Source: Pseudomonadota bacterium (GTDB taxonomy: Bacteria > Pseudomonadota > Gammaproteobacteria > Burkholderiales > Burkholderiaceae_C). Taken from it: 43,139 nucleotides of DNA. The notes under the pieces were generated by a model. It saw nothing but the letters and a program-made list of their open reading frames with translations, did not search any database and was not told the DNA's origin. The position numbers and the translations under genes are program-made. This document shows, in pieces, positions 15,154 through 30,545 of this stretch. Location of the stretch: NCBI GenBank assembly GCA_018240985.1, contig JAFEER010000298.1:1-43139 (forward strand), written 5' to 3'. Numbering within the stretch: position 1 is the stretch's first letter; each line of letters opens with the position of its first letter.

Positions 15154-15252
15154 CTTTGGGGCCTGGTCATGCCTCGTCGTCCTGTGGGCCTGTGATGCGC
15201 CATGGGTGGTGTCGGCGTCCTGGGTTTATGTCCAGTCATACAATCCGCGCCC

Positions 15253-17229: not shown

Positions 17230-17262
17230 GGGATGTCGGCTTCGGGACTCGTTTGCTGGCGA

Positions 17263-17291
17263 TTGACGATACTAACGAACTGCGATAGTAT
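17263..17291 (+). promoter_or_regulatory. higBA promoter with overlapping inverted-repeat operator
   Basis: TTGACG (17263-17268) and TAGTAT (17286-17291) are spaced by exactly 17 bp. The -10 is one arm of an inverted repeat, ATACTA (17269-17274) and TAGTAT, with 11 bp between. This places the antitoxin operator over the promoter, as expected for autoregulation. The predicted transcript start falls at about the toxin ATG (17297), which would give a leaderless mRNA. Confidence 0.7.
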
Positions 17292-17296
17292 TTGCC

Positions 17297-17578
17297 ATGG
17301 CGATTAAATCCTTTGCCGACGCCGATACCCAGGCGCTGTTTGGGCAGCAACGGGTTCGCCGCTGGGTGAACATTGAAGCCGTCGCCCTGCGCAAACTGGC
17401 CATGCTCAACCGCGCCGCCGTGCTGGACGATTTGCGTATTCCGCCCGGCAACCGCCTGGAGGCGCTGCAGGGCGACCGCAAAGGCCAGCACAGCATTCGC
17501 ATCAACGACCAATGGCGCGTGTGTTTTGTCTGGCAAGGCGGGCACGCCACGCAAGTGCAAATCGTGGATTACCACTGA
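17297..17578 (+). CDS. higB: HigB-type mRNA-interferase toxin
   Basis: The 93-residue product is a RelE/ParE-superfamily toxin of the HigB (plasmid maintenance killer) group, which cleaves mRNA on the ribosome. Family features are the start MAIKSFADADTQALF, the helix RKLAMLNRA, then IPPGNRLEALQGDRKGQHSIRINDQWRVCFVW with conserved basic residues for RNA binding and cleavage, and the C-terminal VQIVDYH. The toxin gene precedes the antitoxin, the reversed order characteristic of higBA. The antitoxin starts 12 bp downstream after an AAAGGAG ribosome site. Confidence 0.93.
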   Translation: MAIKSFADADTQALFGQQRVRRWVNIEAVALRKLAMLNRAAVLDDLRIPPGNRLEALQGDRKGQHSIRINDQWRVCFVWQGGHATQVQIVDYH

Positions 17579-17590
17579 AAGGAGTACGAC

Positions 17591-17896
17591 ATGACTACCA
17601 AAATCGCATGGCCGCACCCCGGCGAAATCCTGCTGCATGAATTTTTGGAGCCCATGGGCCTGACCCAGTACCGATTGGCCAAGGAAATCGGGGTCTCGCA
17701 GCGCCGTATCGGCGAGATCGTGGCCGGTGCACGCTCCATCACCGTCGATACCGGGCTGCGGTTGTCTAAATTTTTTGGCACGTCCGATGGGTTTTGGACG
17801 GGCTTGCAGTTCGACTACGACGCCGCCACCGCCAAGGAGCGCATGGCCGATGTGCTGGGGCGTATTCGGCGGTATGAGCATGAAGCAGCCCACTAA
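17591..17896 (+). CDS. higA: HigA-type antitoxin (XRE/HTH)
   Basis: HigA binds and neutralises HigB and represses the operon. The 101-residue product starts WPHPGEILLHEFLEPMGLTQ in the HigA-typical way (after MTTKIA). It has a helix-turn-helix at about 25-50 (QYRLAKEIGVSQRRIGEIVAG) and the conserved ITVDTGLRLSKFFGTSDGFW. AAAGGAG precedes the start. The likely DNA target is the ATACTA...TAGTAT repeat over the -10 of the operon. Its end overlaps a further small open frame. Confidence 0.94.
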   Translation: MTTKIAWPHPGEILLHEFLEPMGLTQYRLAKEIGVSQRRIGEIVAGARSITVDTGLRLSKFFGTSDGFWTGLQFDYDAATAKERMADVLGRIRRYEHEAAH

Positions 17897-18014
17897 ACAA
17901 ATCCCGCACTTCGCCCAGCACCTGCTCGATTCGATCAAGGCGGCAGCCAATGCGCGCGACGTGCCCTACCAATCCTTGATCAAGGTGTGGTTGCAGGAAA
18001 AGCTGCATGGGTAA
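17880..18014 (+). CDS. CopG/BrnA-like small protein, probably a truncated antitoxin
   Basis: The 44-residue frame (MKQPTKQIPHFAQHLLDSI...) overlaps the end of higA by 17 bp. Its C-terminal half, ARDVPYQSLIKVWLQEKL, closely resembles the helix pair of ribbon-helix-helix antitoxins of the CopG/BrnA type, where PYQSLI(K/R)xWL is a familiar stretch. The usual N-terminal part of the protein is missing, as is a partner toxin. It may be a remnant of a further toxin-antitoxin pair, or a small accessory repressor of higBA. No ribosome site of its own is clear, so coupling to higA translation is likely if it is expressed. Confidence 0.5.
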   Translation: MKQPTKQIPHFAQHLLDSIKAAANARDVPYQSLIKVWLQEKLHG

Positions 18015-18089
18015 CTGTTTGGAGAGGCCGGGCGGTGATCACAAAGGCCATGCGCATGAAGCCGCGCAAGGTTGCTGCGGATGTGTAAA

Positions 18090-18115
18090 TTAGCTATTTT
18101 GTACAAAACGGCTAA
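18090..18115. promoter_or_regulatory. 26-bp palindromic operator of the Phd/PIN pair
   Basis: The palindrome has the 12-base core TTTTGTACAAAA (18097-18108), flanked symmetrically by TTAGC and GCTAA with two mismatched bases on each side. TGTACA-centred palindromes are the known target of YefM/Phd-type antitoxins, and the following gene encodes such a protein. A possible -10, TAAAAT at 18113-18118, overlaps the right arm. Confidence 0.75.
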
Positions 18116-18144
18116 AATAAAGCCTCTATTTTCAGGAGTGCAGC

Positions 18145-18453
18145 ATGCTACAAGTCACCTCTGCTGACGCGCAAAACCGCTTTGGCCAGTTGCTGGAGAT
18201 GGCCCAGCGCGAGCCCGTGGCCATCACCCGCCATGGGCGCACGGCGGGCTATGTGATTGGCCCGGCGGACATGGAAATTTTGCTGGCGGCGCGCGGTAGA
18301 CAAGCGCTGGTGAAGCAGGATTTGGATGCCTACTTTCGCAGCCTTGATGCCGTTCGAGTGCCTGGCGCCCCCGTGCTCACAGAGGAAGATATAGCCCGTG
18401 AAATCAAGGCTGTCCGTGCACAGCGCCGCCGCGCACAGAGTGAGGGTGCATGA
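18145..18453 (+). CDS. Phd/YefM-family antitoxin
   Basis: The 102-residue product shows the Phd/YefM N-terminal DNA-binding fold, with LQVTSADAQNRFGQLLEMAQREPVAITRHGRTAGYVI at about 2-38. The C-terminal half is a charged tail expected to wrap the toxin. AGGAG lies 6 bp before the ATG. The gene overlaps the PIN toxin by 4 bp (ATGA), so the two are translated together. Pairing of a Phd-type antitoxin with a PIN ribonuclease, rather than with Doc or YoeB, is less common but well represented in genomes. Confidence 0.88.
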   Translation: MLQVTSADAQNRFGQLLEMAQREPVAITRHGRTAGYVIGPADMEILLAARGRQALVKQDLDAYFRSLDAVRVPGAPVLTEEDIAREIKAVRAQRRRAQSEGA

Positions 18454-18881
18454 GTGCTGGTCTGAGCGTGGTGCTGGACACCAACGTACTGGTCAGTGCC
18501 GCGTTGTGGCGCCATTCCACCCCGGGGCAAGTGTTTGAATGGGCCGCTGGTGCTGGCCGCTTGGTGGTGTGTGAAGCCAGCTTGCAAGAGTTGTACAAGG
18601 TGCTGCAACGCCCCAAGTTCGACCGCATCGCAGCGCGGGCGCAGCGCTTGGCCTTTGTCGATTTGGTACGCACCCACGGCCACCCCGTGGAGCCACAAAG
18701 CCAGCATCACCGCGCCGTGCAGGGCGCCTGCCGCGATGCAGACGACGAGCTGTTTCTGGCTTTGGCCCTGTCGGCACAAGCCCAAACAATCGTCAGCGGT
18801 GACGATGATCTGCTGACCCTCCATCCCTGGCGCGGCATCACGATCTGTACGCCGGCGCAATACCTGGAGCGCGCACGGTGA
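18450..18881 (+). CDS. PIN-domain ribonuclease toxin
   Basis: The 143-residue protein is of the PIN-like toxin group of COG1569 type, predicted to be a Mg-dependent endoribonuclease. Acidic active-site residues are visible: Asp10 in VVLDTNVLVSA, Glu47 in CEASLQELYKVL, Asp96/98/99 in CRDADDELFLALAL, and Asp118-120 in IVSGDDDLL. It is translationally coupled to the Phd-like antitoxin upstream. No further gene of the pair follows; a palindromic unit and a dispersed repeat come next. Confidence 0.88.
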   Translation: MSAGLSVVLDTNVLVSAALWRHSTPGQVFEWAAGAGRLVVCEASLQELYKVLQRPKFDRIAARAQRLAFVDLVRTHGHPVEPQSQHHRAVQGACRDADDELFLALALSAQAQTIVSGDDDLLTLHPWRGITICTPAQYLERAR

Positions 18882-18908
18882 GGCATACATCGCCGCCCCG
18901 GTATTGCC

Positions 18909-18929
18909 CCCTCTCCCCCTGGGAGAGGG
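18909..18929. repeat. CCCTCTCCC palindromic intergenic unit
   Basis: Nine-base arms CCCTCTCCC and GGGAGAGGG are separated by 3 bases, followed by GCTGGGGTGAGGG. This is a very common intergenic palindrome in proteobacterial genomes. It could act as a weak terminator for the PIN gene, although no T-run follows. Confidence 0.7.
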
Positions 18930-18963
18930 CTGGGGTGAGGGCCGACGATCTCAAAAAATATAA

Positions 18964-19013
18964 ACAATTTGTGCCTCTAACGCTTGCTGCATAAGTGCGA
19001 GCAGCTATAAAAA
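18964..19013 (+). repeat. Dispersed ~50-bp repeat, copy C (left of the helicase operon)
   Basis: TGCCTCTAACGCTTG, a short loop, then GCGAGCAGCTATAAAAAC. It is in the same orientation as copies D and E, so C and D stand as direct repeats on the two sides of the helicase-methylase-ATPase operon. Confidence 0.75.
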
Positions 19014-19076
19014 CAATAAAAAAAACCAAGCTGGCAAAAAGCCCACGCAAAAAAGATCAACCCGCCGGAGGATTCC

Positions 19077-19175
19077 TTGTCTGCCATCCATGACTTGATC
19101 GCCCAGATCAGCGACCTGCGTCTGCGCGTGGTGCTGCCCAGTTTCAAACCCACCACCATGATGGCTGTAGTGTGA
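19077..19175 (+). other. Possible 32-codon TTG-started frame ahead of the helicase
   Basis: A GGAGG ribosome site precedes TTG at 19077, opening a 32-residue frame (MSAIHDLIAQISDLRLRVVL...) that ends 39 bp before the helicase start. It may be the remnant of a gene cut at the island edge, a leader peptide, or chance. I recognise no family. It lies in the 333-bp gap 18882-19214, which otherwise holds only the two repeats; no clear promoter was found there. Confidence 0.25.
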
Positions 19176-19214
19176 GCAGTTGAAGTAGATAGGTTGCAGC
19201 AGGAGGAAAGTGCG

Positions 19215-22200
19215 ATGGACGGTCGTAACAGCGTTGTTTCGGGCATCAGAGACAACCACTCACGTGGGAGGGTGTCCGGCTTTCTAGCCGAAAAGATGGC
19301 TGCAGGCAGCACGCTTTCAGTTGTGTCCGCCTACTTCACCATCTATGCCTACGACGCCCTGTCGAGTCAGCTCGATCAGATCGAACATCTGAACTTCCTG
19401 TTCGGAGAGCCCCGTTTTATCGCTTCACTTGATCCGGACAAGACCGACAAGAAGGCTTTCAAAATTGAGGATGAGGGCTTGGAACTCGCCAACCGCTTGC
19501 AGCAAAAAGACGTCGCGCGTCGCTGCGCCGCATGGCTACGTGACAAGGTCGATATTCGCTCGGTTCGCCAGGCCAATCTGCTGCATGGCAAGCTCTACCA
19601 CATTGATGACAGCCGGCGCGAGCACGCCCTGATTGGCAGTTCCAACTTCACCCGTCGCGGCCTGGGCTTGTCCGAAACGCCCAATATCGAACTGAACCTT
19701 GTCGTCGATGGCGACCGTGATCGGGCAGACCTCAAGCAGTGGTTCGATGAAATCTGGGGTGATGAAACGCTGGTCGCCGATGTCAAGGCAGATGTACTGC
19801 GCTACCTCCAGCAGCTTTATGTCGATCACGCGCCAGAGTTCATCTACTTCAAAACGCTATACCACGTTTTCGAACGCTTTCTGTCTGGACAAGAGGCAGA
19901 CGCAGCGCTGTTTGACCAGACCGCGATCATCGACACCGAAATCTGGAAAGCCTTGTTCGATTTTCAGAAGGACGGCGTCAAAGGCGCCATCCACAAGATC
20001 AACGAGCACAACGGCTGCATCCTTGCCGACAGCGTGGGCCTGGGCAAGACCTACTCAGCGCTGGCGGTCATCAAGTATTTCGAACTGCGCAACCATCGGG
20101 TGCTAGTGCTGTGTCCCAAGAAGCTGCGCGACAACTGGACGACCTACCTCGCCCAGAACAACAGCGAACTCAACCCCTTCGTCAAGGATCGTTTCGCCTA
20201 CACCGTTCTTTCGCACACCGATTTATCGCGCGACAGCGGCCGGGTGGACGGCGTCGATCTGACAACGCTCAACTGGGGCAACTTCGACTTGGTCGTCATC
20301 GATGAGTCGCACAATTTTCGCAACAACACCAAAGGCAAGTACGACGAAGACGGGCTCCTCATCCGCAAGAGCCGCTACGAGCGCCTGATGGACGACATCA
20401 TCAAGGCGGGTGTCAAGACCAAGGTGCTGCTGCTCTCAGCCACGCCGGTCAACAACGACCTCAAGGACTTGCGCAACCAGATGTACTTCGTCACCGAAGG
20501 CCGCGACACCGCCTTCGCGCAGGACCTGGGGATCCCAAGCGTCAAGGACACGCTCACCGCTGCCCAGAAGACCTTCATGGATTGGGCCAGGCGTTCCGGA
20601 GAGCGCGATGCCAGTGCCTTGATGGAGCGCCTATCTGCGGGCTTTTTCACCCTGCTGGACGAGCTCACCATCGCCCGCTCACGCAAGCACATCAAAAAAT
20701 ACTACCGTGCTTCGATGGCGCAGATCGGCCAGTTTCCCAAGCGCCGAAAGCCAGAATCCGTGTTCTCGGAGATCGACCTCAAAGGCCGATTCCTCTCCTA
20801 CGACAAGCTCAACGACGAGATCGACAACTACCAGCTCTCCATCTTCAAACCATCCAAGTACGTGCTGGACCAATTCAAGCACCTGTACGCAGACGAACGC
20901 GTCAAGAACTTCAGCCAGGAGCGCCGCGAAACCTTCCTCATCGGCATGATGAAGGTGAACTTCCTCAAGCGGCTGGAGAGTTCCGTGCGCTCGTTCGCCA
21001 TCACCATGGAGCGCACCGTCAGCAAGATTGAAACACTGGAGGAGCGCCTCAAGCAATTCCAGCAACACCAGGCCAACGCAGCGCAAGACGTGCAGACCGA
21101 CCTGTTTGCCGATCAGGCAGAAGAAGACGAAGAACTGGCCGAAGCCTTTGAAGTCGGCTCCAAGCTCAAATACCGCATGGAGCATATGGACGTTGCCGCC
21201 TGGCTGGCCGATCTGGCCACCGACAAGCAGCAACTCGCACTGTTGGCCGATGCGGCCCAGGCCGTGGACGCCGCGCGCGACGCCAAGCTGGCCGAACTCA
21301 AGCGCCTGATCGAGCACAAGGTGCATCACCCCAGCACCAACACGTTGGGCAAAAGCAACCGCAAAGTCATCGTCTTCTGCGCGTTTGCTGATACCGCCGC
21401 CTATCTTTTCGAAGAGCTGCAGGGTTGGGCGCGCAACACCTTGGGCATTCACATCGCCCTGGTATCCGGTGGCGCACGTCCCAACCGCAGCACCTTCGGC
21501 AACGAAGCGTTTAGCCACATCCTCACCAACTTCGCCCCGCGTGCCAAGCAGCGCGCCAAGATGAAGGCCATGCCGCAGGATGGCGAAATCGACCTGCTGA
21601 TTGCTACCGACTGCATCAGCGAGGGCCAGAATCTGCAGGACTGCGACACCCTCATCAATTACGACATCCACTGGAACCCGGTGCGCATCATCCAGCGCTT
21701 TGGCCGCATCGATCGCATCGGCAGCCCCAATGCGGCCATCCAGCTCGTCAACTTCTGGCCCACGCCAGACCTGAACAAATACATCAACCTCAAGAACCGC
21801 GTCGAGGCGCGCATGGCGCTGGTCGATATCGCCGCCACGGCGGAAGACAACATCTTGCAAACCGAAGATTTGGAAGAGCTCATCAAGCAAGACCTGCGCT
21901 ACCGCGACAAGCAACTGCTGCGGCTCAAGGATGAAGTGCTCGATCTGGAAGATTTCAATGAGTCCGTCGCTCTGAATGAATTCACCCTGGACGACTTCCG
22001 CATGGAGCTGGCCACCTACATCGAGGCCAACCGCGAGAAGCTTGAAGAGGCGCCGTTCGGCCTGTATGCCGTGGTGCCGCCGCATGCGCAGTACAGCACC
22101 ATCCAGCCCGGCGTCATTTATTGCCTAAAGCAACGTATCGACGCCGCCGGCAACGAAGCGGTAAACCCACTGCAGCCGTACTTTCTCGTGTACATCCGCG

Positions 22201-22541
22201 ACGATGGAGAAGTGCGCTACAACTTCACCGCACCCAAGCAGGTGCTGGAAATCTTGCGCAACGTGTGTCAGGGCCAGACTGAACCGCACGCCGCGCTGTG
22301 CAAGCTGTTCGATGAAGAAACCGTCCACGGGCAAGACATGGGCCGCTACAGCACGCTGCTGGACAAGGCCGTGGCCGCCATTGCCGTACAGTTTGGGCGC
22401 AAGAATGCAGGCAACCTGTTCACTGGGCGGGGTGGCAAATTGCTGGGCAGCCAGAACACCATCAAAGCCAGCACAGACTTCGATCTCATCACCTGGCTGG
22501 TCATCCGGCAGACCACCGCCTCGAAAGGGGGCGCAGCATGA
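19215..22541 (+). CDS. PLD-nuclease/SNF2-helicase fusion (Hma-type helicase)
   Basis: The 1108-residue product starts at ATG 19215 after AGGAGGA. The N-terminal third is a phospholipase D-type nuclease domain with an intact HxKx4D motif, His124/Lys126/Asp131 in HGKLYHID, followed by GSSNFTRRGL (141-150). A superfamily 2 SNF2-type ATPase follows: motif I DSVGLGKT (272-279), motif II DESH (363-366), motif III SAT (408-410), motif V around ATDCISEGQNLQD (about 797-809), and motif VI QRFGRIDRIG (about 826-835). A long, charged, coiled region separates the two helicase lobes. PLD nucleases usually work as dimers when they carry one HKD motif. It is the first gene of a four-gene operon. Its role is probably foreign-DNA translocation and cleavage; this is inferred, not shown. 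Confidence 0.9.
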   Translation: MDGRNSVVSGIRDNHSRGRVSGFLAEKMAAGSTLSVVSAYFTIYAYDALSSQLDQIEHLNFLFGEPRFIASLDPDKTDKKAFKIEDEGLELANRLQQKDVARRCAAWLRDKVDIRSVRQANLLHGKLYHIDDSRREHALIGSSNFTRRGLGLSETPNIELNLVVDGDRDRADLKQWFDEIWGDETLVADVKADVLRYLQQLYVDHAPEFIYFKTLYHVFERFLSGQEADAALFDQTAIIDTEIWKALFDFQKDGVKGAIHKINEHNGCILADSVGLGKTYSALAVIKYFELRNHRVLVLCPKKLRDNWTTYLAQNNSELNPFVKDRFAYTVLSHTDLSRDSGRVDGVDLTTLNWGNFDLVVIDESHNFRNNTKGKYDEDGLLIRKSRYERLMDDIIKAGVKTKVLLLSATPVNNDLKDLRNQMYFVTEGRDTAFAQDLGIPSVKDTLTAAQKTFMDWARRSGERDASALMERLSAGFFTLLDELTIARSRKHIKKYYRASMAQIGQFPKRRKPESVFSEIDLKGRFLSYDKLNDEIDNYQLSIFKPSKYVLDQFKHLYADERVKNFSQERRETFLIGMMKVNFLKRLESSVRSFAITMERTVSKIETLEERLKQFQQHQANAAQDVQTDLFADQAEEDEELAEAFEVGSKLKYRMEHMDVAAWLADLATDKQQLALLADAAQAVDAARDAKLAELKRLIEHKVHHPSTNTLGKSNRKVIVFCAFADTAAYLFEELQGWARNTLGIHIALVSGGARPNRSTFGNEAFSHILTNFAPRAKQRAKMKAMPQDGEIDLLIATDCISEGQNLQDCDTLINYDIHWNPVRIIQRFGRIDRIGSPNAAIQLVNFWPTPDLNKYINLKNRVEARMALVDIAATAEDNILQTEDLEELIKQDLRYRDKQLLRLKDEVLDLEDFNESVALNEFTLDDFRMELATYIEANREKLEEAPFGLYAVVPPHAQYSTIQPGVIYCLKQRIDAAGNEAVNPLQPYFLVYIRDDGEVRYNFTAPKQVLEILRNVCQGQTEPHAALCKLFDEETVHGQDMGRYSTLLDKAVAAIAVQFGRKNAGNLFTGRGGKLLGSQNTIKASTDFDLITWLVIRQTTASKGGAA

Positions 22542-23575
22542 CCGACAAGCGTATCAGTGCGCCACCAGAGCCCGGTTTTACCGACATCGCGCAACTCATC
22601 AGCGCTGCCCGCCAGCGTGCCGTGCAGGCGGTCAACACCACGCTGATTGAGCTGCATTGGCAGATTGGCCAGCGCATCAGCCAAAAGATCGCTGCTGCCG
22701 AATGGGGCGATGGCGTGGTCGATCAACTCGCTCGTTACTTGGCGCAAACCCAACCGGGGCTGCGCGGCTTTACCCGCCGCAACCTGTTCAGGATGCGGCA
22801 GTTTTACGAGGCGTATGCCGACCCTGAAATTGTCTCGGCAGTGCTGACACAATTGCCCTGGACGCACCACCTCATCATCCTTAATCAAAGCAAGCGCCCT
22901 GAAGAACGCGAGTTCTACCTACGGCTGGCAGTGCAAGAACGATGGAGCAGCAGACAACTGGAGCGCCAGTTCAAAGCCGCTCTGTTCGAGCGTGCGGTTT
23001 TGAGTCCACCAAAAGTGTCAGCACTGCTGACACAAACCCATCCAGATGCCGCCACCGTCTTTAAAGACAGCTATCTGCTTGAATTCCTGGGTCTGCCCCA
23101 AAACCACGCCGAGGTCGACCTGCACCGCGGCCTGCTGCTGCAGCTCAAGGACTTCCTGATCGAACTGGGGCGAGACTTCTGCTTTGTGGGCAGCGAATAC
23201 CCGGTGCAGGTCGGTGGGCGCGACTTTGCGCTGGACTTGCTGTTTTTCCATCGCGGCCTCAACAGCCTGGTCGCCATCGAGCTGAAGGTCGGGCGCTTCG
23301 AGCCGGAATACCTAGGCAAGCTCAACTTCTACTTGGAAGCCCTGGACAGGGATGTAAAAAAGCCGCACGAGCACCCGGCAATCGGCGTGCTGCTGTGCGC
23401 CAGCAAGGATGACGAGGTGGTGGAGTACGCCCTGAGCCGCAGCACCGCGCCCGCCCTAGTTGCCGACTACCAAACCCAATTGCCCGACAAAGCCCTGCTG
23501 CGCGCCAAGCTGCATGAGTTTTATCTACTGCACAGCCAGGCGCTGAATGAGAGCACCGATAACAAACCTCTATGA
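22538..23575 (+). CDS. DUF1016 (YhcG-like) PD-(D/E)XK nuclease embedded in the operon
   Basis: The 345-residue protein has the two-part DUF1016 layout. An N-terminal helical domain (about 20-170) begins IAQLISAARQRAVQAVNTTLIELHWQIGQRI and includes LPWTHHLIILNQSK. A C-terminal restriction-like nuclease domain carries Asp233 in FALDLLFFHR and Glu248-Leu-Lys250 in AIELKVGRF, the expected catalytic triad. It overlaps the helicase before it and the methylase after it by 4 bp (ATGA both times), so it is integral to the operon and not a chance neighbour. DUF1016 proteins often accompany type I restriction systems; embedding between helicase and methylase is less usual. It is a clearly divergent paralogue of the protein at 29409. 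Confidence 0.92.
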   Translation: MTDKRISAPPEPGFTDIAQLISAARQRAVQAVNTTLIELHWQIGQRISQKIAAAEWGDGVVDQLARYLAQTQPGLRGFTRRNLFRMRQFYEAYADPEIVSAVLTQLPWTHHLIILNQSKRPEEREFYLRLAVQERWSSRQLERQFKAALFERAVLSPPKVSALLTQTHPDAATVFKDSYLLEFLGLPQNHAEVDLHRGLLLQLKDFLIELGRDFCFVGSEYPVQVGGRDFALDLLFFHRGLNSLVAIELKVGRFEPEYLGKLNFYLEALDRDVKKPHEHPAIGVLLCASKDDEVVEYALSRSTAPALVADYQTQLPDKALLRAKLHEFYLLHSQALNESTDNKPL

Positions 23576-26500
23576 GCACCAACACTGCCGTCAAAAACAG
23601 CATCAGCCAGCATCTTCAAGCAATAGCCACCAAGTCCTTAGCGCAAGGCGCCACCGACTTCTTGGTAGCACTGGGCTACCGCAGCGACAAGACCGCCGAC
23701 CTCGGCAATGATGCTGAAACCCTGCTGGGCAACATCGAGCAGTTCCGCCCAGACCTCGGCGCCATCAACCGCGCCAAAGTACACGCCAGCCGCTGGAAGT
23801 CCTGCACCTTCCTGTTCCAACTCAGCAACGACGAAATTCCTTCGCTGGCTCTAGGTCAGTTGCCCTTGGGTGCTGAAGAAAAACTAGCGCAAGGCCAGAT
23901 CGAGTCCTTCGTCTTCCTCGCGCTCGACCTGCAAGGCGAAGGCTGGTCACGCGGCCAACTGGCCACCATCACGCGCGAGCTGAACAAGCGTTTCCCCATG
24001 CCCGCCATCATCCTGTTCCGGCAGGAAGGGCTGTTTTCGCTGGCAGTGATTGACCGCCGCCAGAATCTGCGCGATGCCAGCCGCGACGTAATTGAAAGCC
24101 GCATCACCGTCATCAAGGACGTGCGCCTGGCCAGCCCGCATCGCGCGCACATCGACATCCTCGCCAGCCTGGCCCTGCAAAACCTGGGCGACAAGCGCCG
24201 CCCCGGCAACTTTCGCGAGTTGTACGACGCTTGGGTTGCCACCCTTTCCACCCAGAAGCTCAACAAGGACTTTTATCAGCAACTGGCCTGGTGGTACCTG
24301 TGGGCCACCAAGGAGGTGGACTTCCCCAAAGGCGGCGGGCCAGACCGCAACGCCATCGGCGTCATCCGTCTGCTCACGCGCTTGATCTTTGTCTGGTTCA
24401 TCAAAGAGCGTGGCCTGGTGCCCGAAGCCCTGTTCGACCGGGCAGCACTCCAAACCCTGCTCAAACAAGCGCCAGATGCCGCGCCGGATGACAGCAACTA
24501 CTACCACGCCATCCTGCAAAACCTGTTCTTTGCCACCCTGAACCAGGAAATGGGCGCCGAACGCCGCTGGGCCAAAACCGGCAGCGGCATGAAGGGCGAC
24601 TACCTCATCTCCCTCGTTTACCGCTATCAGGATGCCTTCCAGCATCCGGACAAGGTGTTGCAAGACAGCTTTGCCTCCGTGCCCTTCCTCAACGGCGGCC
24701 TGTTCGAATGTCTGGACGAGCAACTCACCGAAGAAGACCTTGCCCGCCGCCCAGAACTGAAAGAGCTGGTGGTGCAGGAAGGCAAGGGCTGGGTGCTGCG
24801 TGTCGATGGCTTCTCGCGCCGCCCCGAGGCGCAAGCGAAGGTGCCGAACAAGCTCTTTTTCGGCGGAACCGAAGACGCCGCGCTGAACACCGAGTTTGAA
24901 ACCAGGGGCAAACGCTACCCAGTGCAGGGCCTGATCGACCTGCTGGACAGCTACAAATTCACAGTGGACGAAAACACGCCGCTGGACGAAGAAGTGGCGC
25001 TAGACCCGGAGCTGTTGGGTAAGGTGTTCGAAAACCTGCTGGCCAGCTACAACCCCGACACCAAAACCACAGCGCGCAAGCAATCCGGCAGCTTCTACAC
25101 CCCGCGCGAAGTGGTGGACTACATGGTGGACGAGGCGCTCATCGCCTACTTCGCCGGCCATCTGCCTGATGGAGAGCAGCGCGAGCGGGACTTGCGCCAA
25201 CTGCTCTCCCACGCCGATGCCGAAGTCAATTTCAGCCCAACCGAAACCGATGCACTGGTCACGGCCATCGAGCAACTCAAGGCGCTGGACCCGGCCTGCG
25301 GCTCCGGCGCCTTTCCCATGGGCATTCTGGCCAAGCTGTTCGTGGCGCTGCAAAAGCTCGACCCCGACAACCACCGCTGGCGCGCGCAAAACCTCAGCCC
25401 TCTGGAGCAGCGCCTGGCCCTGGCCAAGAAAACGCCCGACCCCGTGCAGCGCGACGCCGAAATCGAAGACGCCGAAGCCGCGCTGCAAAAGCACAAAAAA
25501 GACTTTGCCGACTCGGCCTACGCCGACTACACCCGCAAGCTCTACCTGATCGAAAAGTGCATCTTCGGCTCCGACATCCAGCCCATTGCCGTACAGATCG
25601 CCAAGCTGCGCTTTTTCATCGCCCTCATCGTCAGCCAGCCGATTGACAAGGCTAAACCCAATTACGGCATCACCGCGCTGCCCAATCTGGAAACCAAGAT
25701 CGTCGCCGCCAACACCCTGTTTGGTGTGCCACGCCACGGCGCGCAAGGCTCGCTGCTGGACGACCCGGCCATTGCCGAGAAAGAGGCCGAGCTGCGCGAC
25801 GCCAACGCCGCCTACTTCACCGCCCGCACCCGCGCCACCAAAAAGCGCCGCAAAGAGAAGGTGCAAAAACTGCACGAGGAACTGGTCGCCCTGCTGCAGC
25901 GCGACGGCTTCGTCACCGCGCGCGACGCCGAGCGCATGGCGCGCTGGAACCCGTTTGACCAGAACCGCTTTGCCGACTTCTTCGATGTGGAATGGATGTT
26001 CGGCATGCCACGCGCGGCCGACCATTCCGAAGCGGTGTTTGACATCGTCATAGCCAACCCGCCCTATGTGCGGCAGGAAGAAATCAAGGACTTGAAGCCG
26101 CTGCTCAAGGACGTGTACCAATACGAGTGCTACACCGGCACGGCCGATCTGTTCGTCTATTTCTACGAGCGTTCGGTCAAGCTGCTCAAACCCCACGGCG
26201 CGCTGTCCTTCATCACCTCCAACAAGTGGTACCGCGCCAAGTACGGTGAAAACCTGCGCCTGTTCATGGCCACGCACACACGGCTCAAAAACATCATCGA
26301 CTTTGGCGACGAGGCCGTGTTCACCGCCATTGCCTACCCCACCATCGTCATCGCCACGCGGCGCGAGAGGCCGCTGAACCCGGCACCTGCCAGCGATCAG
26401 GTGCGTGCCTTGAATTGGGCGCAGACGCACCCGGTGGAGGAATTTCCGGCGGTTTTTCAGGCCGAGGCTTTTGCCGTGCCCCAAGCCGAACTCAAGAAAG

Positions 26501-27501
26501 AAGGCTGGCAACTGGAACCACCGGGCAAGCGTGCCTTGCTGGCGCGCATCCGCAACGCGGGCACGCCCTTGGGGCAGTATGTGAATGGCCGGTTTTATTA
26601 CGGCATTAAAACCGGTTTGAACGAAGCCTTTGTCATCGACGGTGTCACTCGTGCGCGGCTTGTTGCCGAAGACCCAAAGTCTGCAGAAGTCATCAAGCCG
26701 TTTTTGCGCGGGCGCGATGTGAAGCGGTGGGGTGTGGAATTTGAAGACCAGTACCTCATCAAGATCGAATCGTCCGAAAACGTGCCGCACCCTTGGAGTG
26801 GCAAGAAGGATGCCGAAAAGGTGTTTGCCAATTGCTACCCGGCAATTCATGCGCACTTCCAAGATTACCGGCAGGCAATGATTGACCGCTACGACCAGGG
26901 GAAATACTTCTGGGAGCTGCGCGCTTGCGTTTATTGGCAGGAATTCGAGCAGCCAAAAATCGTCTATCCGGACATCTATTTGCACCAAAGTTTCGCGTGG
27001 GACACAGAGGGCTACTACGCGGCCAACACCTGTTACTTCATTCCAACCGAAGAGCGGTGGCTTACGGGGGTTCTCAACTCTTCGCTGATCGAGTGGTTCT
27101 ACGAGCAAATTGCGAACCGAATCCAAAATGGGTATCTGCGAGCATTTTCAGACTATATGAAGCAGGTGCCCGTTTCGTCGGCAACGGCAGAGCAAAAACT
27201 GCTGGTGGATGTTGGTGTTGGTGCTGCCTTGATCGGGGCTGACGTGAGATACGAGCAACTCATCAACGGCCTCGTCTTCGAACTGTTTTTCCCGGAAGAC
27301 CTGCACGCCGCGAACATCCGTCTGTTCGACGCCTGCGAGCAGGCCGGTGTCGGCAAGCTGGCTGACTTGCAGGGCGACGCGCTGGCCAAGGCAGCGCAAA
27401 AGCTGGCCGCCACCCTCTTCGCCAACGACCACCCCATCTACGCCATGCTGTTTGACCTGCAGGCGTTGGAGGTGGTGCGCATCATCGAGGGCAGGGAATG
27501 A
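23572..27501 (+). CDS. Large Eco57I-type adenine-specific DNA methylase
   Basis: The 1309-residue protein is an N6-adenine DNA methyltransferase of the Eco57I/type IIG kind. SAM motif I is DPACGSGAF (573-581), and the catalytic motif IV is NPPY (829-832, in IVIANPPYVRQEE). Between them lies a long charged insert. About 560 residues precede the methylase core; they resemble the N-terminal part of BREX/Pgl-like and DISARM-like methylases, and I see no convincing PD-(D/E)XK nuclease there. The C-terminal 400 residues include a probable target-recognition region (LEPPGKRALLARIRNAG, FYYGIKTGLNEAFVID, then FLRGRDVKRW). It overlaps both neighbours by 4 bp. In context it probably marks self DNA for the helicase/nuclease partners. 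Confidence 0.93.
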   Translation: MSTNTAVKNSISQHLQAIATKSLAQGATDFLVALGYRSDKTADLGNDAETLLGNIEQFRPDLGAINRAKVHASRWKSCTFLFQLSNDEIPSLALGQLPLGAEEKLAQGQIESFVFLALDLQGEGWSRGQLATITRELNKRFPMPAIILFRQEGLFSLAVIDRRQNLRDASRDVIESRITVIKDVRLASPHRAHIDILASLALQNLGDKRRPGNFRELYDAWVATLSTQKLNKDFYQQLAWWYLWATKEVDFPKGGGPDRNAIGVIRLLTRLIFVWFIKERGLVPEALFDRAALQTLLKQAPDAAPDDSNYYHAILQNLFFATLNQEMGAERRWAKTGSGMKGDYLISLVYRYQDAFQHPDKVLQDSFASVPFLNGGLFECLDEQLTEEDLARRPELKELVVQEGKGWVLRVDGFSRRPEAQAKVPNKLFFGGTEDAALNTEFETRGKRYPVQGLIDLLDSYKFTVDENTPLDEEVALDPELLGKVFENLLASYNPDTKTTARKQSGSFYTPREVVDYMVDEALIAYFAGHLPDGEQRERDLRQLLSHADAEVNFSPTETDALVTAIEQLKALDPACGSGAFPMGILAKLFVALQKLDPDNHRWRAQNLSPLEQRLALAKKTPDPVQRDAEIEDAEAALQKHKKDFADSAYADYTRKLYLIEKCIFGSDIQPIAVQIAKLRFFIALIVSQPIDKAKPNYGITALPNLETKIVAANTLFGVPRHGAQGSLLDDPAIAEKEAELRDANAAYFTARTRATKKRRKEKVQKLHEELVALLQRDGFVTARDAERMARWNPFDQNRFADFFDVEWMFGMPRAADHSEAVFDIVIANPPYVRQEEIKDLKPLLKDVYQYECYTGTADLFVYFYERSVKLLKPHGALSFITSNKWYRAKYGENLRLFMATHTRLKNIIDFGDEAVFTAIAYPTIVIATRRERPLNPAPASDQVRALNWAQTHPVEEFPAVFQAEAFAVPQAELKKEGWQLEPPGKRALLARIRNAGTPLGQYVNGRFYYGIKTGLNEAFVIDGVTRARLVAEDPKSAEVIKPFLRGRDVKRWGVEFEDQYLIKIESSENVPHPWSGKKDAEKVFANCYPAIHAHFQDYRQAMIDRYDQGKYFWELRACVYWQEFEQPKIVYPDIYLHQSFAWDTEGYYAANTCYFIPTEERWLTGVLNSSLIEWFYEQIANRIQNGYLRAFSDYMKQVPVSSATAEQKLLVDVGVGAALIGADVRYEQLINGLVFELFFPEDLHAANIRLFDACEQAGVGKLADLQGDALAKAAQKLAATLFANDHPIYAMLFDLQALEVVRIIEGRE

Positions 27502-29075
27502 GCGCACAGTCGCCTGCGCCGCTCGCAGCACCAGCGGCGCCCACAACGCCGCTGCGCATCAAGTGCCTCTCGCTCACCGACTTCCGCGCTTTCCCTGGCC
27601 AAGCGCAGGCGGATTTCAACCTCGATGGCAACAATCTGCTGGTCTATGGCGAAAACGGCGCGGGCAAATCTTCGCTGTTTCACGCGCTGGGCGGCTTCTT
27701 TTCCCTTAAGCCGCCTCAGGCCTTGCGCGAGCACAAAAACGTCTTTTCTGGGCTGCCCGATACGGATTGCAGGGTAGCGGTCAAATTTTCCAATGGTGAT
27801 GATTGGGTCGAATGGACCACGTCTCGGCATCCATGCATATCGACTGCGCGTAGGCCAGCCGGAAACTGGTATAGCTTTGCTTTTGGCAATGCCGACTCGC
27901 GCGCCATCTCCACGGCACAGCGAGCCAGCTTCCTTGACTACCGCGCCTTGCTGGACACCAACTACAAGCAGGGCAATGGCCCGATCAACCTGTTTGACAT
28001 CGCCGTGGAACACCTGCTGCGTGACTTTCCCGTCGCCACAGCGGGCGGCACGTCCACCACTATTGGCGCGCTATGGGATGCTGTGGTTCGCAGCAAGCCG
28101 GGCAAGCACACCAACGCGGCACTGACCCGCATCAACCAGTCCTGCGTTGATTTCAATACCGCCTTTCGCGGCGCGTTTCCCGTACTGGTTCCGCTCGTCA
28201 ACGAGCTGATGCAATTGCTGGGCTGGAAGGATGTGGAGATCAAAGGTTTCAACACCCCTGGCCTGACCTACAACAACGCGCGCCTGAAACAGAACCGGGC
28301 AATCGACGGGCAGAAGCTGGAACCCGAGCTGAGCTTCCGCAACCACCCGCTGCGAACGCCGCAGTTGTTCCTCAACGAGGCCCGGCTCTCGGCCTTGGGG
28401 CTGTCCATCTACCTCGCCGGTCGTCTGGCCTGCACGCCGACAGCCACCGCAACCGCGCTCAAGCTGCTGGTGCTGGACGACGTGGTGATTGGGCTGGACT
28501 ACTCCAACCGTTTGCCGCTGCTGGATGTGCTGAACAGCCAATTCGCCGATTGGCAGATCGTGCTGCTCACCCATGACCGAAACTGGTTCGACCTGGCGCG
28601 CTCGCACCTGCCTGAGCCCGGCTGGAACTGCGTGGAGGTCTATGAAGGCGATGGCGCGGCCACGGCGCCCATGCCCATCATCCGGCCCACCCAAAACCGA
28701 CCCGCACGCGCCTTGCTGGCAAAAGCCAAGGAATTGATTGCCACGCCCTATGTGGAAGCCGCCGCGAACTACACCCGCCAAGCCTTTGAGCTGGGGGTGC
28801 GCGCAGCCTGCGAGCTGAAGAAGATTGAGATGCGCTACACCACCGACCCCAAGGCGCATCAGGCGCAGGATTTTCTGGACAAGCTCATAGGCTGGACGGC
28901 AACAGGCAGCGTGAAGCAGGCCGATTGGGATGCTGCGCTGGCACGGCTTCGGACGTTGAAGAACGTGGTGATGAACCCGTATTCCCACCCTGATGCACCC
29001 AACATCCCGAAAGCGGAAGTCGAGCAGGCCATTGGTGCAGTAGAGATATTTCTAGACTTGGCAGCAAAGAAATGA
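27498..29075 (+). CDS. ABC/SMC-like ATPase of the defence operon
   Basis: The 525-residue protein has a RecF/SMC-type split ATPase. Walker A is GENGAGKSS (51-59) after LSLTDFRAFPG. An LNEARLSALGLSIYLA stretch (about 292-307) occupies the place of the ABC signature. Walker B is KLLVLDDVVIGLD (322-334), with Asp-Asp instead of the more usual Asp-Glu, and the switch histidine is His359 in LLTHDRNWF. The C-terminal 140 residues are helical (RALLAKAKELIATPYVEAAANYTR). There is no long coiled coil of the Rad50 kind. It overlaps the methylase by 4 bp and ends the operon; only broken pieces lie between it and the second DUF1016 gene. Confidence 0.9.
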   Translation: MSAQSPAPLAAPAAPTTPLRIKCLSLTDFRAFPGQAQADFNLDGNNLLVYGENGAGKSSLFHALGGFFSLKPPQALREHKNVFSGLPDTDCRVAVKFSNGDDWVEWTTSRHPCISTARRPAGNWYSFAFGNADSRAISTAQRASFLDYRALLDTNYKQGNGPINLFDIAVEHLLRDFPVATAGGTSTTIGALWDAVVRSKPGKHTNAALTRINQSCVDFNTAFRGAFPVLVPLVNELMQLLGWKDVEIKGFNTPGLTYNNARLKQNRAIDGQKLEPELSFRNHPLRTPQLFLNEARLSALGLSIYLAGRLACTPTATATALKLLVLDDVVIGLDYSNRLPLLDVLNSQFADWQIVLLTHDRNWFDLARSHLPEPGWNCVEVYEGDGAATAPMPIIRPTQNRPARALLAKAKELIATPYVEAAANYTRQAFELGVRAACELKKIEMRYTTDPKAHQAQDFLDKLIGWTATGSVKQADWDAALARLRTLKNVVMNPYSHPDAPNIPKAEVEQAIGAVEIFLDLAAKK

Positions 29076-29088
29076 AGAAGAACACCGA

Positions 29089-29211
29089 ACCAGCCTGCCC
29101 AGCATCGAGCAGATCGAAAGCGAATTGCAATGGGTGGGCAATGCCTTGTGTGACATCAAGACACTACCCGAATGGAGATTTGAATGTTTTCTGCCTGTAA
29201 CGCTTGTTTGA
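29089..29211 (+). pseudogene. Severed C-terminal tail of a DUF1016 gene
   Basis: The frame TSLPSIEQIESELQWVG at 29089-29139 matches the end of the intact DUF1016 gene at 30394-30444 in 45 of 51 bases, and runs on to a stop at 29211. Only the tail survives, directly after the ATPase stop. As in the intact locus, the tail is followed by a copy of the dispersed repeat (D here, E there). This indicates a duplicated or replaced DUF1016-repeat segment. The gap 29076-29408 otherwise holds repeat D and two very short frames. Confidence 0.8.
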
Positions 29212-29236
29212 CAAGCGCAATAAGCTATTTATTTTC
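29182..29236 (+). repeat. Dispersed ~50-bp repeat, copy D (right of the helicase operon)
   Basis: TGCCTGTAACGCTTG, a loop, then CAAGCGCAATAAGCTATTTA. The right half, AGCGCAATAAGCT, is identical to copy E ahead of parC. Confidence 0.75.
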
Positions 29237-29240
29237 AAGC

Positions 29241-29412
29241 ATGAAAGACATCGTTGAACTCGACCTGTTCGCCTCCGATGCGGATGGCGCCCCCTGGCGA
29301 GCTACGCGTTTCGCCAATGGCAGACGGCTGTGAATTTGAGCCGCCGCTTGGAGCACAAATGATTTTTGCCGCTGCCAACGGTTGGGGTGGCGCACAGGAT
29401 GGCCCGCCATGA
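29241..29412 (+). other. Two short overlapping frames ahead of the second DUF1016 gene
   Basis: An ATG at 29241 opens a 30-residue frame (MKDIVELDLFASDADGAP...) ending at 29333. A second ATG at 29317, in another frame, opens 31 residues (MADGCEFEPPLGAQ...) whose TGA overlaps the ATG of the DUF1016 gene. Together they look like one short gene broken by a frameshift, but I recognise no family. They could equally be chance frames or serve translational coupling. Confidence 0.25.
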
Positions 29413-30473
29413 CCGATCAACCCATCTCCCTCGTGCCCTTGCCGCAAGGCTACGCCGACTGGCTGTCCGAGCTGAAAACCCGCATCCACAGCGCCCAGCA
29501 GCGCGCCGCGCTGGCGGTGAATCGCGAACTGGTGCTGCTGTACTGGCAGATCGGGCGTGACATTCTGGCGCGCCAGACCGAGCAGGGCTGGGGCGCCAAG
29601 GTGATCGAGCGGCTGGCGCATGACTTGCATACTGCGTTTCCGCAGATGAAGGGATTTTCGCGCGCCAACCTGATGTACATGCGCGCGTTTGCACAGGCGT
29701 GGCCTTCGGAGGAATTTGTCCAACAGCCTGTTGGACAATTGCCCTGGGGACATAACCTGGTGCTGCTGTCCAAGCTGAAGTCGGCAGACGAACGCCAGTG
29801 GTACGCGGCCAAAGCGATTGAACACAACTGGTCGCGCAACGTGCTGGTGATGCAGATCGAAACCCGCCTGCGTGAGCGCAGCGGCGCGGCGGTTACCAAT
29901 TTTGCGCAGCGCCTGCCGCAGCCCCAATCCGACCTGGCGCGCGAGTCGCTCAAAGACCCCTACCGGTTTGATTTTTTGGGCCTGACGGATGAAGCGCAGG
30001 AGCGCGAGATTGAAAACGCCCTGGTGCGGCACGTCACGGAATTTTTGCTGGAGCTGGGTGCGGGCTTTGCTTTTGTCGGGCGGCAGGTGTTGTTGGACGT
30101 GGGCGGGGAGGAGTTCTTTATCGACCTGCTGTTCTATCACCTCAAGCTGCGCTGTTACGTGGTGATCGAACTCAAGGCAGGCAAGTTCAAACCCGAGCAT
30201 TTGGGGCAGCTGGGTTTTTATCTGACCGCTGTCGATCGGCAGGTGAAATCTGAGCAAGACGCACCCACCATCGGCCTGCTGCTGTGCAAGAGCCAGAACA
30301 AGGTGGTGGCCGAATATGCGCTGGGCGACAAGACCCAGCCCATGGGAGTGGCGGAATACAAGCTGATCGAATCCCTGCCCGCCGAGCTGCAAACCAGCCT
30401 GCCCAGCATCGAGCAAATCGAAGCCGAGTTGCAGGGGGTGGGCGAGGCGCCGCCGTCCACGCATCCTTCCTAG
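29409..30473 (+). CDS. Second DUF1016 (YhcG-like) PD-(D/E)XK nuclease
   Basis: The 354-residue protein has the N-terminal DUF1016 helical domain (YADWLSELKTRIHSAQQRAALAV, then LPWGHNLVLLSKLK) and the C-terminal nuclease domain with Asp239 in FFIDLLFYHL and Glu254-Leu-Lys256 in VIELKAGKF. The start MTDQPISLVP at 29409 is preferred over an upstream in-frame ATG at 29382, because the extension has no family match. It is only distantly similar to the embedded copy at 22538 and lies outside the ATGA-coupled operon, separated from it by a relic and a repeat. It may be a solo defence nuclease or the remainder of a type I restriction locus. Confidence 0.9.
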   Translation: MTDQPISLVPLPQGYADWLSELKTRIHSAQQRAALAVNRELVLLYWQIGRDILARQTEQGWGAKVIERLAHDLHTAFPQMKGFSRANLMYMRAFAQAWPSEEFVQQPVGQLPWGHNLVLLSKLKSADERQWYAAKAIEHNWSRNVLVMQIETRLRERSGAAVTNFAQRLPQPQSDLARESLKDPYRFDFLGLTDEAQEREIENALVRHVTEFLLELGAGFAFVGRQVLLDVGGEEFFIDLLFYHLKLRCYVVIELKAGKFKPEHLGQLGFYLTAVDRQVKSEQDAPTIGLLLCKSQNKVVAEYALGDKTQPMGVAEYKLIESLPAELQTSLPSIEQIEAELQGVGEAPPSTHPS

Positions 30474-30487
30474 TGAATGAATATTCG

Positions 30488-30541
30488 AATGTTTTTGGCC
30501 TCTAGCGCCCACCAGTAAAGCGCAATAAGCTCTTATTTTTG
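30488..30541 (+). repeat. Dispersed ~50-bp repeat, copy E (upstream of parC)
   Basis: TGGCCTCTAGCGCCC, a loop, then AAAGCGCAATAAGCTCTTA. It ends 4 bp before the parC ATG, so it occupies the parC ribosome-binding region. Confidence 0.75.
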
Positions 30542-30545
30542 AAGC

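What the first reader, a model, noticed from the sequence alone, without database searches (positions are those of the whole stretch)
19215..29075. Four-gene ATGA-coupled defence operon: PLD-helicase, DUF1016 nuclease, Eco57I-type methylase, ABC ATPase
Seen: all three junctions are 4-bp ATGA overlaps, so the four proteins are made from one message in fixed order, and every catalytic motif I looked for is intact. Known: a helicase, a large adenine methylase and an ATPase together define the Hma (helicase-methylase-ATPase) class listed in the PADLOC defence catalogue, as I recall, and other genes embedded in such operons are treated as defence candidates. Inferred: this is an Hma-type system in which DUF1016 is an embedded, co-translated component and not a hitch-hiker. 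It is not DISARM (no drmA/drmB/drmC), BREX (no pglZ/brxL) or type I restriction (no hsdS).
Basis: partly seen in the sequence, partly recalled or inferred. Interest (0 to 1): 0.88.

Follow-up and report, generated by a model that had tools for sequence, protein, structure and literature searches.

The report
Restriction-like operon with exchangeable nuclease slot
This bacterial gene cluster looks like a DNA-methylating anti-virus defence system whose 'ATPase' probably also carries an RNA-cutting domain, and whose extra nuclease gene sits in a slot that related clusters leave empty or fill with other toxin-like genes.

Summary
The four ORFs and three ATGA overlaps are real; motifs are intact. 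Hma is not supported: HmaB and DUF499 (HmaC) profiles find nothing in this genome, and the HmaA profile matches 14 of 14 control genomes. In 73 homologous loci where helicase and adenine-methylase can be compared, DUF1016 is neither core nor a lone insertion: the slot between them is empty in 42, holds DUF1016 in 11, and holds other genes in 20 (toxin-antitoxin genes, Fic, AlbA_2, BRO/KilA-N and more). The three closest relatives have it empty. The fourth gene, found in 34 of 81 methylase loci, is not a plain ATPase but a Rad50-like ABC ATPase with a HEPN-like C-terminus keeping PrrC/RloC-type R-x3-E...SH residues. In this genome DUF1016 also sits in two type I restriction operons and overlaps a Type ISP gene. 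Best reading: a restriction-modification-like system (methylase plus HKD/SNF2 helicase) with a probable ABC-HEPN back-up RNase and an exchangeable embedded nuclease, on a 13-kb island between parE and parC. All function is inferred. Embedding of defence genes in restriction loci is known; this host operon, its slot census and the HEPN reading are the additions.

The parts
17230..30545 (.). Foreign-looking island between parE and parC that carries the operon
   Evidence: parE 15202-17229 and parC 30546-32894 by Pfam type II topoisomerase subunit domains (gyrB/gyrA not told apart). Island genes GC 0.58-0.63, GC3 0.69-0.78 against 0.67-0.68 and 0.88-0.91 for the flanking pair. In six near relatives with both genes adjacent the gap is 0.3-1.0 kb (read by hand); in the three of these fetched (L118-L120) it holds one gene of 275-323 aa, lytic-transglycosylase-like by eye only
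19215..22541 (+). HKD (PLD) nuclease fused to SNF2 helicase
   Evidence: Pfam PLDc_2, SNF2-rel_dom, Helicase_C; PADLOC C3a139 'HKD+Snf2' 429 bits over residues 32-1073
19584..19649 (+). HKD active-site segment H124xK126...GSSNF145
   Evidence: H124, K126, S142 and N144 conserved at 90% or more of 64 helicases
22538..22541 (+). ATGA stop/start overlap helicase / DUF1016
   Evidence: DNA
22538..23575 (+). DUF1016 (YhcG) PD-(D/E)XK nuclease in the helicase/methylase slot
   Evidence: Pfam DUF1016_N 155.6 bits, YhcG_C 185 bits; PADLOC PDC-S02 450 bits
23234..23287 (+). DUF1016 catalytic segment D233...E248xK250
   Evidence: 21-row alignment
23572..23575 (+). ATGA overlap DUF1016 / methylase
   Evidence: DNA
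23572..27501 (+). Eco57I-type N6-adenine methylase with TaqI-like specificity domain; no ExK motif conserved in the N-terminal 480 residues
   Evidence: Pfam Eco57I, TaqI_C; DPACGSGAF 573, NPPY 829; conservation over 70 rows
27498..27501 (+). ATGA overlap methylase / ABC
   Evidence: DNA
27498..29075 (+). SbcC/Rad50-like ABC ATPase with C-terminal HEPN-like domain
   Evidence: Pfam AAA_23 and SMC_N; AlphaFold2 pLDDT 81.6; Foldseek best matches Rad50 4ncj and retron-Eco7 complex 9kjx
28701..29066 (+). HEPN-like helical domain with R427-x3-E431...S496-H497
   Evidence: R427 in 32 of 32 rows, E431 in 30, H497 in 31, S496 in 26; HEPN PF05168 E 0.0011, below gathering; domain model matches HEPN structures first, weakly
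29382..30473 (+). Second, separate DUF1016 gene 306 bp downstream
   Evidence: Pfam; 40% identical to the first; 83% identical to a DUF1016 lying between a methylase and a DEAD helicase on a Polaromonas plasmid
17297..17896 (+). HigB-like toxin and HTH antitoxin pair in the island
   Evidence: Pfam
18145..18881 (+). Phd/PIN toxin-antitoxin pair in the island
   Evidence: Pfam

Best explanation
An ATP-dependent restriction-modification-like anti-phage operon with layered effectors. Step 1: the Eco57I/TaqI_C methylase recognises a DNA site and marks host adenines. Step 2: the HKD-SNF2 helicase, the only clear nuclease of the two core proteins, translocates on unmarked DNA and cuts it. Step 3: the ABC-HEPN protein is held inactive by the intact complex or by its own ATPase head, and acts as a PrrC/RloC-like RNase that stops translation when phage inhibits or overwhelms restriction. 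Step 4: DUF1016 is an exchangeable embedded nuclease, expressed with the operon, that adds a further DNA-directed effector. Shown here: domain content, operon structure, slot variability and the shared use of DUF1016 by other restriction operons. Inferred from the families: steps 1-4 as activities.
For: Domains and motifs. Helicase upstream of methylase in 73 of 81 loci, window included. No conserved ExK motif in methylase residues 1-480, while H and K of the HKD motif stand in 63 of 64 helicase rows, the 64th being cut there. ABC-HEPN: residues; HEPN or DUF4145 profile matches in 5 of 10 C-termini, all below gathering; domain model whose PDB ranks 1, 2 and 5 are titled HEPN and rank 3 is Csm6. 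RloC triad Arg-X3-Glu-X36-52-His with Ser often before His, confirmed there by mutation (PMC2610378, passages); PrrC embedded in an hsd locus, and RloC-like ABC-HEPN genes beside R-M and DOC genes (PMC3710099, section 10). Slot: 31 of 73 filled, by at least eight families. DUF1016 with R-M: 16 of 40 surveyed DUF1016 loci have an R-M gene within 2 kb on the same strand, against 0 of 20 control stretches; two hsd operons and one Type ISP gene in this genome.
Against: No activity was measured. In 32 of 66 loci with an answer the ABC gene was not found, so step 3 is optional. The HEPN Rx4-6H arginine is missing in the window protein (NVVMNPYSH; R-x6-H stands in 11 of 32 rows), E431-to-H497 spacing is 65 residues against 36-52 in RloC, and residues 496-500 are modelled at pLDDT below 50. 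The HEPN domain model has no PDB match at E 0.001 or better; ranks 1-5 have E 0.02-0.14; 5 of 10 C-termini matched no HEPN family. DUF1016 targets are unknown. The helicase tree is a quick one with long branches.
Confidence: 0.58

Rival explanations
1. DUF1016 is an obligate subunit of this system (for example the restriction nuclease), and operons without it use a replacement nuclease.
For: ATGA coupling on both sides in the window; D...(D/E)xK kept in the 10 slot copies aligned.
Against: 42 of 73 operons have nothing in the slot, including the three closest relatives with helicase 89% and methylase 78-81% identical; the cargo families are not all nucleases (antitoxins, Fic, BRO/KilA-N).
Confidence: 0.12
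2. The slot is only a tolerated insertion site: DUF1016 and the other genes are mobile or addiction passengers that gain expression and persistence from the operon and add nothing to its defence.
For: Several cargos are toxin-antitoxin genes or Y1 transposase-like genes; DUF1016 also occurs away from restriction genes on plasmids; on the helicase tree DUF1016 is no more clustered than shuffled labels (145 of 500 as low).
Against: DUF1016 recurs in the slot in four separate groups of its tree and lies by R-M genes in 16 of 40 loci against 0 of 20 controls, on the same strand, which favours a functional link or selection for that location.
Confidence: 0.23
3. It is an Hma (DUF499-centred, BREX-related) system, as first proposed.
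For: Helicase, methylase and ATPase words match; HmaA profile 91 bits.
Against: HmaA profile matches 14 of 14 control genomes; HmaB 0, DUF499 0, both of which do match one control genome; HmaC is a DUF499 ATPase (PMC12839542, passages), whereas this protein is Rad50-like ABC.
Confidence: 0.02
4. It belongs with the CxC ABC-ATPase/PbeABCD systems (HKD-SF2 helicase, methylase in some, ABC ATPase, DndE).
For: Same classes of parts (PMC10853773, passages); weak PbeA 40 bits and PbeC 23 bits.
Against: No C-x-C in 30 of 32 ABC rows, the window's included; no DndE match in the 4 operon proteins and 10 neighbours. The whole-genome DndE search gave 0 but also 0 in all controls, so it shows nothing.
Confidence: 0.05

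Closest known systems
PrrC in the EcoprrI (hsd) locus; RloC
   Same: Rad50-like ABC ATPase plus C-terminal HEPN domain with R-x3-E...(S)H; PrrC is carried in a restriction operon
   Different: PrrC's host is a type I hsd system; here it is an HKD-SNF2 helicase plus TaqI_C methylase; E-to-H spacing 65; no Rx4-6H arginine in the window protein; RNA target unknown
RloC-like ABC-HEPN + R-M + DOC/Fic neighbourhoods (PMC3710099)
   Same: ABC-HEPN with R-M genes and a Fic protein, as in L021 of this family (same-length genes in L022, L023)
   Different: I could not see whether their Figure 5 (not held) shows this helicase/methylase pair; DUF1016 is not mentioned in the main text
CxC ABC-ATPase / PbeABCD systems (PMC10853773)
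   Same: HKD-SF2 helicase, sometimes a methylase, ABC ATPase
   Different: No CxC hook; no DndE in the neighbourhood; the ABC protein here ends in a HEPN-like domain
HKD-SNF2 + DUF4391 + site-specific methylase operons on plasmids (L004-L007)
   Same: Helicase 42-45% identical to the window's, among its best plasmid matches
   Different: DUF4391 in the second position; no match to this methylase or ABC protein in these loci; a DEAD/DEAH helicase follows in two of the four
Type I hsd operons with embedded genes (DUF1016 and AlbA_2 in L144, L146; DarTG2 in EPEC, PMC12255303, passages)
   Same: Overlapping pool of accessory genes inserted among modification, specificity and helicase genes
   Different: Different core enzymes

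Membership tests
Hma | HmaA helicase | tested here: inconclusive
   91 bits, but the profile also matches 14 of 14 control genomes
Hma | HmaB methylase | tested here: not met
   PDLC00660 and PDLC00661: 0 matches in the genome; each matches 1 of 14 controls
Hma | HmaC = DUF499 ATPase | tested here: not met
   PF04465: 0 matches in the genome; 1 of 14 controls
DISARM | DrmD helicase equivalog | tested here: not met
   NF038317 163 bits against cut-off 610; PADLOC DrmD 142 bits, behind C3a139 at 429
DISARM | drmA, drmB, drmC alongside | tested here: inconclusive
   None evident among the 4 operon proteins (PADLOC; a DrmA match of 80 bits is on the helicase core) or 10 neighbours (Pfam only; two had no family); genome not searched
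BREX | PglX equivalog | tested here: not met
   NF033452 76 bits against cut-off 500
BREX | pglZ, brxC alongside | tested here: inconclusive
   None evident in the 10 neighbours (Pfam); genome not searched
Type IIG restriction enzyme | Methylase carries its own N-terminal PD-(D/E)XK nuclease | tested here: inconclusive
   Best PADLOC model is REase_MTase_IIG, 346 bits, best stretch residues 652-1202; no nuclease domain in Pfam; no ExK conserved at 80% in residues 1-480 of 70 rows. Motif level only; no fold was modelled
CxC ABC / PbeABCD | CxC Zn-hook in the ABC ATPase | tested here: not met
   2 of 32 ABC rows hold any C-x-C, the window does not
CxC ABC / PbeABCD | DndE partner | tested here: inconclusive
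   None in 4 operon proteins or 10 neighbours; genome search 0, but 0 in all 14 controls too
PrrC/RloC-like ABC-HEPN | Rad50-like ABC head | tested here: met
PrrC/RloC-like ABC-HEPN | C-terminal R-x3-E...H (Ser often before His) | tested here: met
   R427 32 of 32, E431 30, S496 26, H497 31 rows; spacing 65 instead of 36-52
HEPN superfamily | HEPN helical-bundle fold | tested here: inconclusive
   Favourable but weak: Pfam HEPN 19.6 bits against a 22-bit cut-off; domain model (pLDDT 74.7) ranks HEPN structures first but at E 0.02-0.14
HEPN superfamily | Rx4-6H motif | tested here: not met
   Window has NVVMNPYSH; 11 of 32 relatives have R-x6-H
PrrC/RloC-like ABC-HEPN | tRNA anticodon nuclease activity | not testable with these tools
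   Needs an assay
DUF1016/YhcG (PDC-S02) | DUF1016_N + YhcG_C with D...(D/E)xK | tested here: met

The most novel reading that the evidence does not exclude
The helicase/methylase junction is a dedicated effector port. Whatever co-translated protein sits there (DUF1016, Fic, PIN, AlbA_2, KilA-N and others) is held by the helicase-methylase complex and released when phage inhibits restriction, so one conserved sensor-restrictor is re-armed with new effectors from the same pool that serves type I hsd operons.
Probability: 0.22. Interest if true: 0.8.

Novelty: new variant of a known kind. Interest (0 to 1): 0.45.

Why it matters
Genes embedded in restriction operons are being used to discover defences, but why they are embedded is open. 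This family offers a clean series: closely similar helicase and methylase with the slot empty (Achromobacter, Azospira, Pollutimonas) or holding DUF1016 (window, Comamonas badia), plus other cargos, so the effect of the embedded gene can be tested in one background. It also predicts that the gene read as a plain ATPase is a guard RNase.

Tried and rejected
Hma was tested and set aside. DISARM and BREX fall below their curated helicase/methylase cut-offs; PbeABCD lacks support; a self-cleaving Type IIG enzyme is not supported at motif level but not excluded. A viral-contig scan with the methylase found no relative. The ABC protein was found in 1 of 369 genomes of the class at E 1e-10 (the window's own), the methylase in 3 of 398 of the phylum at E 1e-60 (own included): the system is uncommon. 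Solved structures by sequence: none for DUF1016 at E 0.01; helicase and methylase match generic SNF2-type helicases and TaqI/BseCI-like methylases. An apparent deficit of cargo where the ABC gene is present (9 of 32 filled against 14 of 27, counted by hand) is not significant (Fisher p 0.11) and is confounded by descent. No paper joining these parts was found: (six terms, at least five) gave 0; the listings showed none on DUF1016 function in titles or abstract starts (PMC1913061, which holds DUF1016 once, was not opened; PMC11341870 names it once in a figure legend). Preprints are not held. The source paper on embedded defences (bioRxiv 2024.01.29.577857) was seen only as a reference in PMC12255303 and PMC12137116, and the ABC-ATPase survey (gkaa726) is not held.

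Rows dropped: slot census 76 rows minus L062, L086, L088 (helicase not upstream of the methylase); five more of the 81 loci show no helicase. Helicase tree: 9 of 73 scored loci left out for helicase frames under 700 aa (L028, L039, L049, L061, L064, L069, L080, L090, L093); L062 and L086 are in the tree but not counted. ABC conservation: 32 of 34 (two frames under 400 aa left out). DUF1016 survey: 40 of 61 non-own hits, taken in list order, some on short contigs; tblastn with 12 R-M queries, of which 8 came from operons known to hold DUF1016 (five from L144/L145/L146 type I and ISP operons, two from L100, and the window's own pair counted as one source), so the queries are not blind to DUF1016, and 16 of 40 is at the same time a lower bound for unrelated R-M types. 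Control stretches (20, 8 kb) were placed by hand on the same genomes.
Full report
Observation. The window holds four + strand genes joined by three ATGA overlaps at the stated place. The helicase carries an HKD nuclease domain of the HxK...GSSN type; H and K stand in 63 of 64 aligned helicases, the 64th (L098) being cut there.

Surroundings. The operon lies in a stretch of lower G+C between a type II topoisomerase pair that I call parE (15202-17229) and parC (30546-32894), together with a HigB/HTH pair, a Phd/PIN pair and a second DUF1016 gene. In six near relatives with both genes adjacent (G749, G756, G764, G715, G788, G760) the gap is 0.3-1.0 kb, and in the three of these fetched (L118-L120) it holds a single gene of 275-323 aa that looks like a lytic transglycosylase by eye (not scanned); in the same-genus genome G750 the two genes lie far apart. 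The wider family shows gaps up to 9.7 kb (read by hand). The island is probably acquired (inference from composition and relatives).

Relatives. One scan of 84,980 genomes with a two-sequence methylase alignment gave 78 loci; with G428, G054 and the window, 81 loci were mapped by tblastn, ORF calls and profiles. The scan used two peptide patterns and kept the best matches, so the sample is biased.

The slot. In 73 loci (window included) a helicase lies upstream of the methylase (L062, L086 and L088 dropped, five without helicase). In 42 the two genes lie at most 248 bp apart without a full gene between; a candidate ATG overlaps the helicase stop by 4 or 8 bp in 27, 28 with the frame-broken L019; L049 has an ORF6N remnant. 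In 31 something lies between: DUF1016 in 11 (window, L024, L054, L055, L057, L064, L071, L075, L080 twice, L094, and a truncated copy with a Y1 transposase in L078), AbrB/PIN, ParD/PIN or antitoxin-like genes in 6, Fic in 3 (one with ORF6N), Schlafen AlbA_2 in 3 (one short, one with an SMC-like ATPase), BRO-N or KilA-N in 3, Y1 transposase-like in 2, DUF3800 in 1, an AAA ATPase in 1, unknown in 1. Most were named by Pfam; DUF1016 copies by similarity profile and L054 and L078 also by Pfam; L063, L092 by similarity to named cargo; L026/L044 antitoxins by eye. The closest relatives, Pollutimonas, Achromobacter and Azospira (L021-L023; helicase 89%, methylase 78-81%), have an empty slot; L021 has a Fic gene overlapping the helicase start by 4 bp and a SIR2-like gene downstream (Pfam), and L022 and L023 have genes of the same lengths there. 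On the helicase tree (64 labelled rows, quick method) the DUF1016 label (9 rows) needs 8 changes, as starred branches force, and is no more clustered than shuffled labels (145 of 500 as low); empty/filled needs 12 and is clustered (0 of 500). On a DUF1016 tree (21 rows, careful method; the 11 other rows chosen by me) ten slot copies form four separate groups, 4 label changes, also forced; direction is not determined. The window's double ATGA is not general among slot copies; spacing is tight in some and up to about 450 bp in others (L064, L071).

DUF1016 as an embedded gene elsewhere. The same genome has six DUF1016_N matches: the two here; one in an operon of hsdM end, a small ORF, hsdS, DUF1016 (overlapping hsdS by 4 bp), a small ORF and hsdR (L144); one in hsdM-hsdS-DUF1016-AlbA_2-hsdR (L146); one overlapping a Type ISP gene by 4 bp (L145); and a partial one (L147). 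Of 61 further DUF1016 hits in 120 family genomes I took 40 in list order: 16 have an R-M gene within 2 kb on the same strand; 20 control stretches of 8 kb from the same genomes have none. Several of the R-M queries come from operons that hold DUF1016, so the survey is not fully blind.

The fourth gene. Its 26-row alignment keeps Walker, signature and D-loop residues and, past residue 400, R427, E431, N493, P494 and H497 (R 32, E 30, H 31 of 32 rows). Pfam HEPN (window E 0.0011, L021 0.012) or DUF4145 (L040 0.014, L055 0.015, L029 0.16) match weakly in 5 of 10 C-termini, all below gathering; the other five match no HEPN family. The AlphaFold2 model matches Rad50 and retron-Eco7 complex chains in its head. 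The C-terminal domain modelled alone (pLDDT 74.7) ranks HEPN structures 1wol, 2hsb and 4nqf and Csm6 among its first five PDB matches, but at E 0.02-0.14, with none at 0.001 or better. RloC's mutagenised triad is Arg-X3-Glu-X36-52-His with Ser often before His (PMC2610378, passages), and PrrC/RloC are ABC heads with C-terminal HEPN domains (PMC3710099, section 10 read). The window protein fits in architecture and residues but has a longer spacing and lacks the Rx4-6H arginine. I rate 'HEPN-like fold' at about 0.8 and 'active RNase' at about 0.55.

Family placement. Hma fails on two of three parts (definitions from PMC8565338 and PMC12839542, passages; PMC8565338 calls HmaB an m5C enzyme, PMC12839542 an N6 one). 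DISARM and BREX fail their curated cut-offs. PbeABCD fails on the CxC hook; its DndE test is inconclusive. Type IIG is not supported but open. What it works like: an ATP-dependent R-M system with PrrC-style back-up. What it is a member of: the HKD-SNF2/Eco57I helicase-methylase family of the 73 loci, for which I found no published name; PADLOC holds the helicase as model C3a139 'HKD+Snf2'.

Novelty. Embedding of defence genes in restriction loci, ABC-HEPN proteins beside R-M and DOC genes, and HKD-helicase/methylase/ABC assemblies are each in print. The census of this slot, its overlap in cargo with hsd operons of the same genome, and the HEPN reading of this ATPase are the additions, as far as paper searches could show.

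Noticed in passing
window 29382-30473: A second DUF1016 gene, 40% identical to the first and 83% identical to one embedded between a methylase and a DEAD helicase on a Polaromonas plasmid (L100).
   Followed up: partly
window 17230-30545: The parE-parC interval is 13.3 kb here, 0.3-1.0 kb in six near relatives and up to 9.7 kb in the family: it may be an insertion hotspot.
   Followed up: partly
L021, L022, L023 (5636 to about 19340): Runs of same-length genes (353 aa Fic, helicase, methylase, ABC, 623 aa SIR2-like, 485 aa) in Pollutimonas, Achromobacter and Azospira, which suggests recent exchange; the 485-aa protein of L021 has no Pfam match.
   Followed up: no
L144, L146 (own genome C145, C244): Two type I hsd operons carrying embedded DUF1016, one with AlbA_2 as well.
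   Followed up: partly
L036:10140-11186: A RhuM gene (Pfam) overlaps the end of the ABC gene by 4 bp: a second insertion point downstream of the core.
   Followed up: no
L013-L016 (cyanobacterial plasmids): The gene order is reversed (methylase first, helicase last) with two or three unannotated genes between.
   Followed up: no
L075:3935-11396: Three DUF1016 genes in one region, one in the slot and two downstream of the methylase.
   Followed up: no
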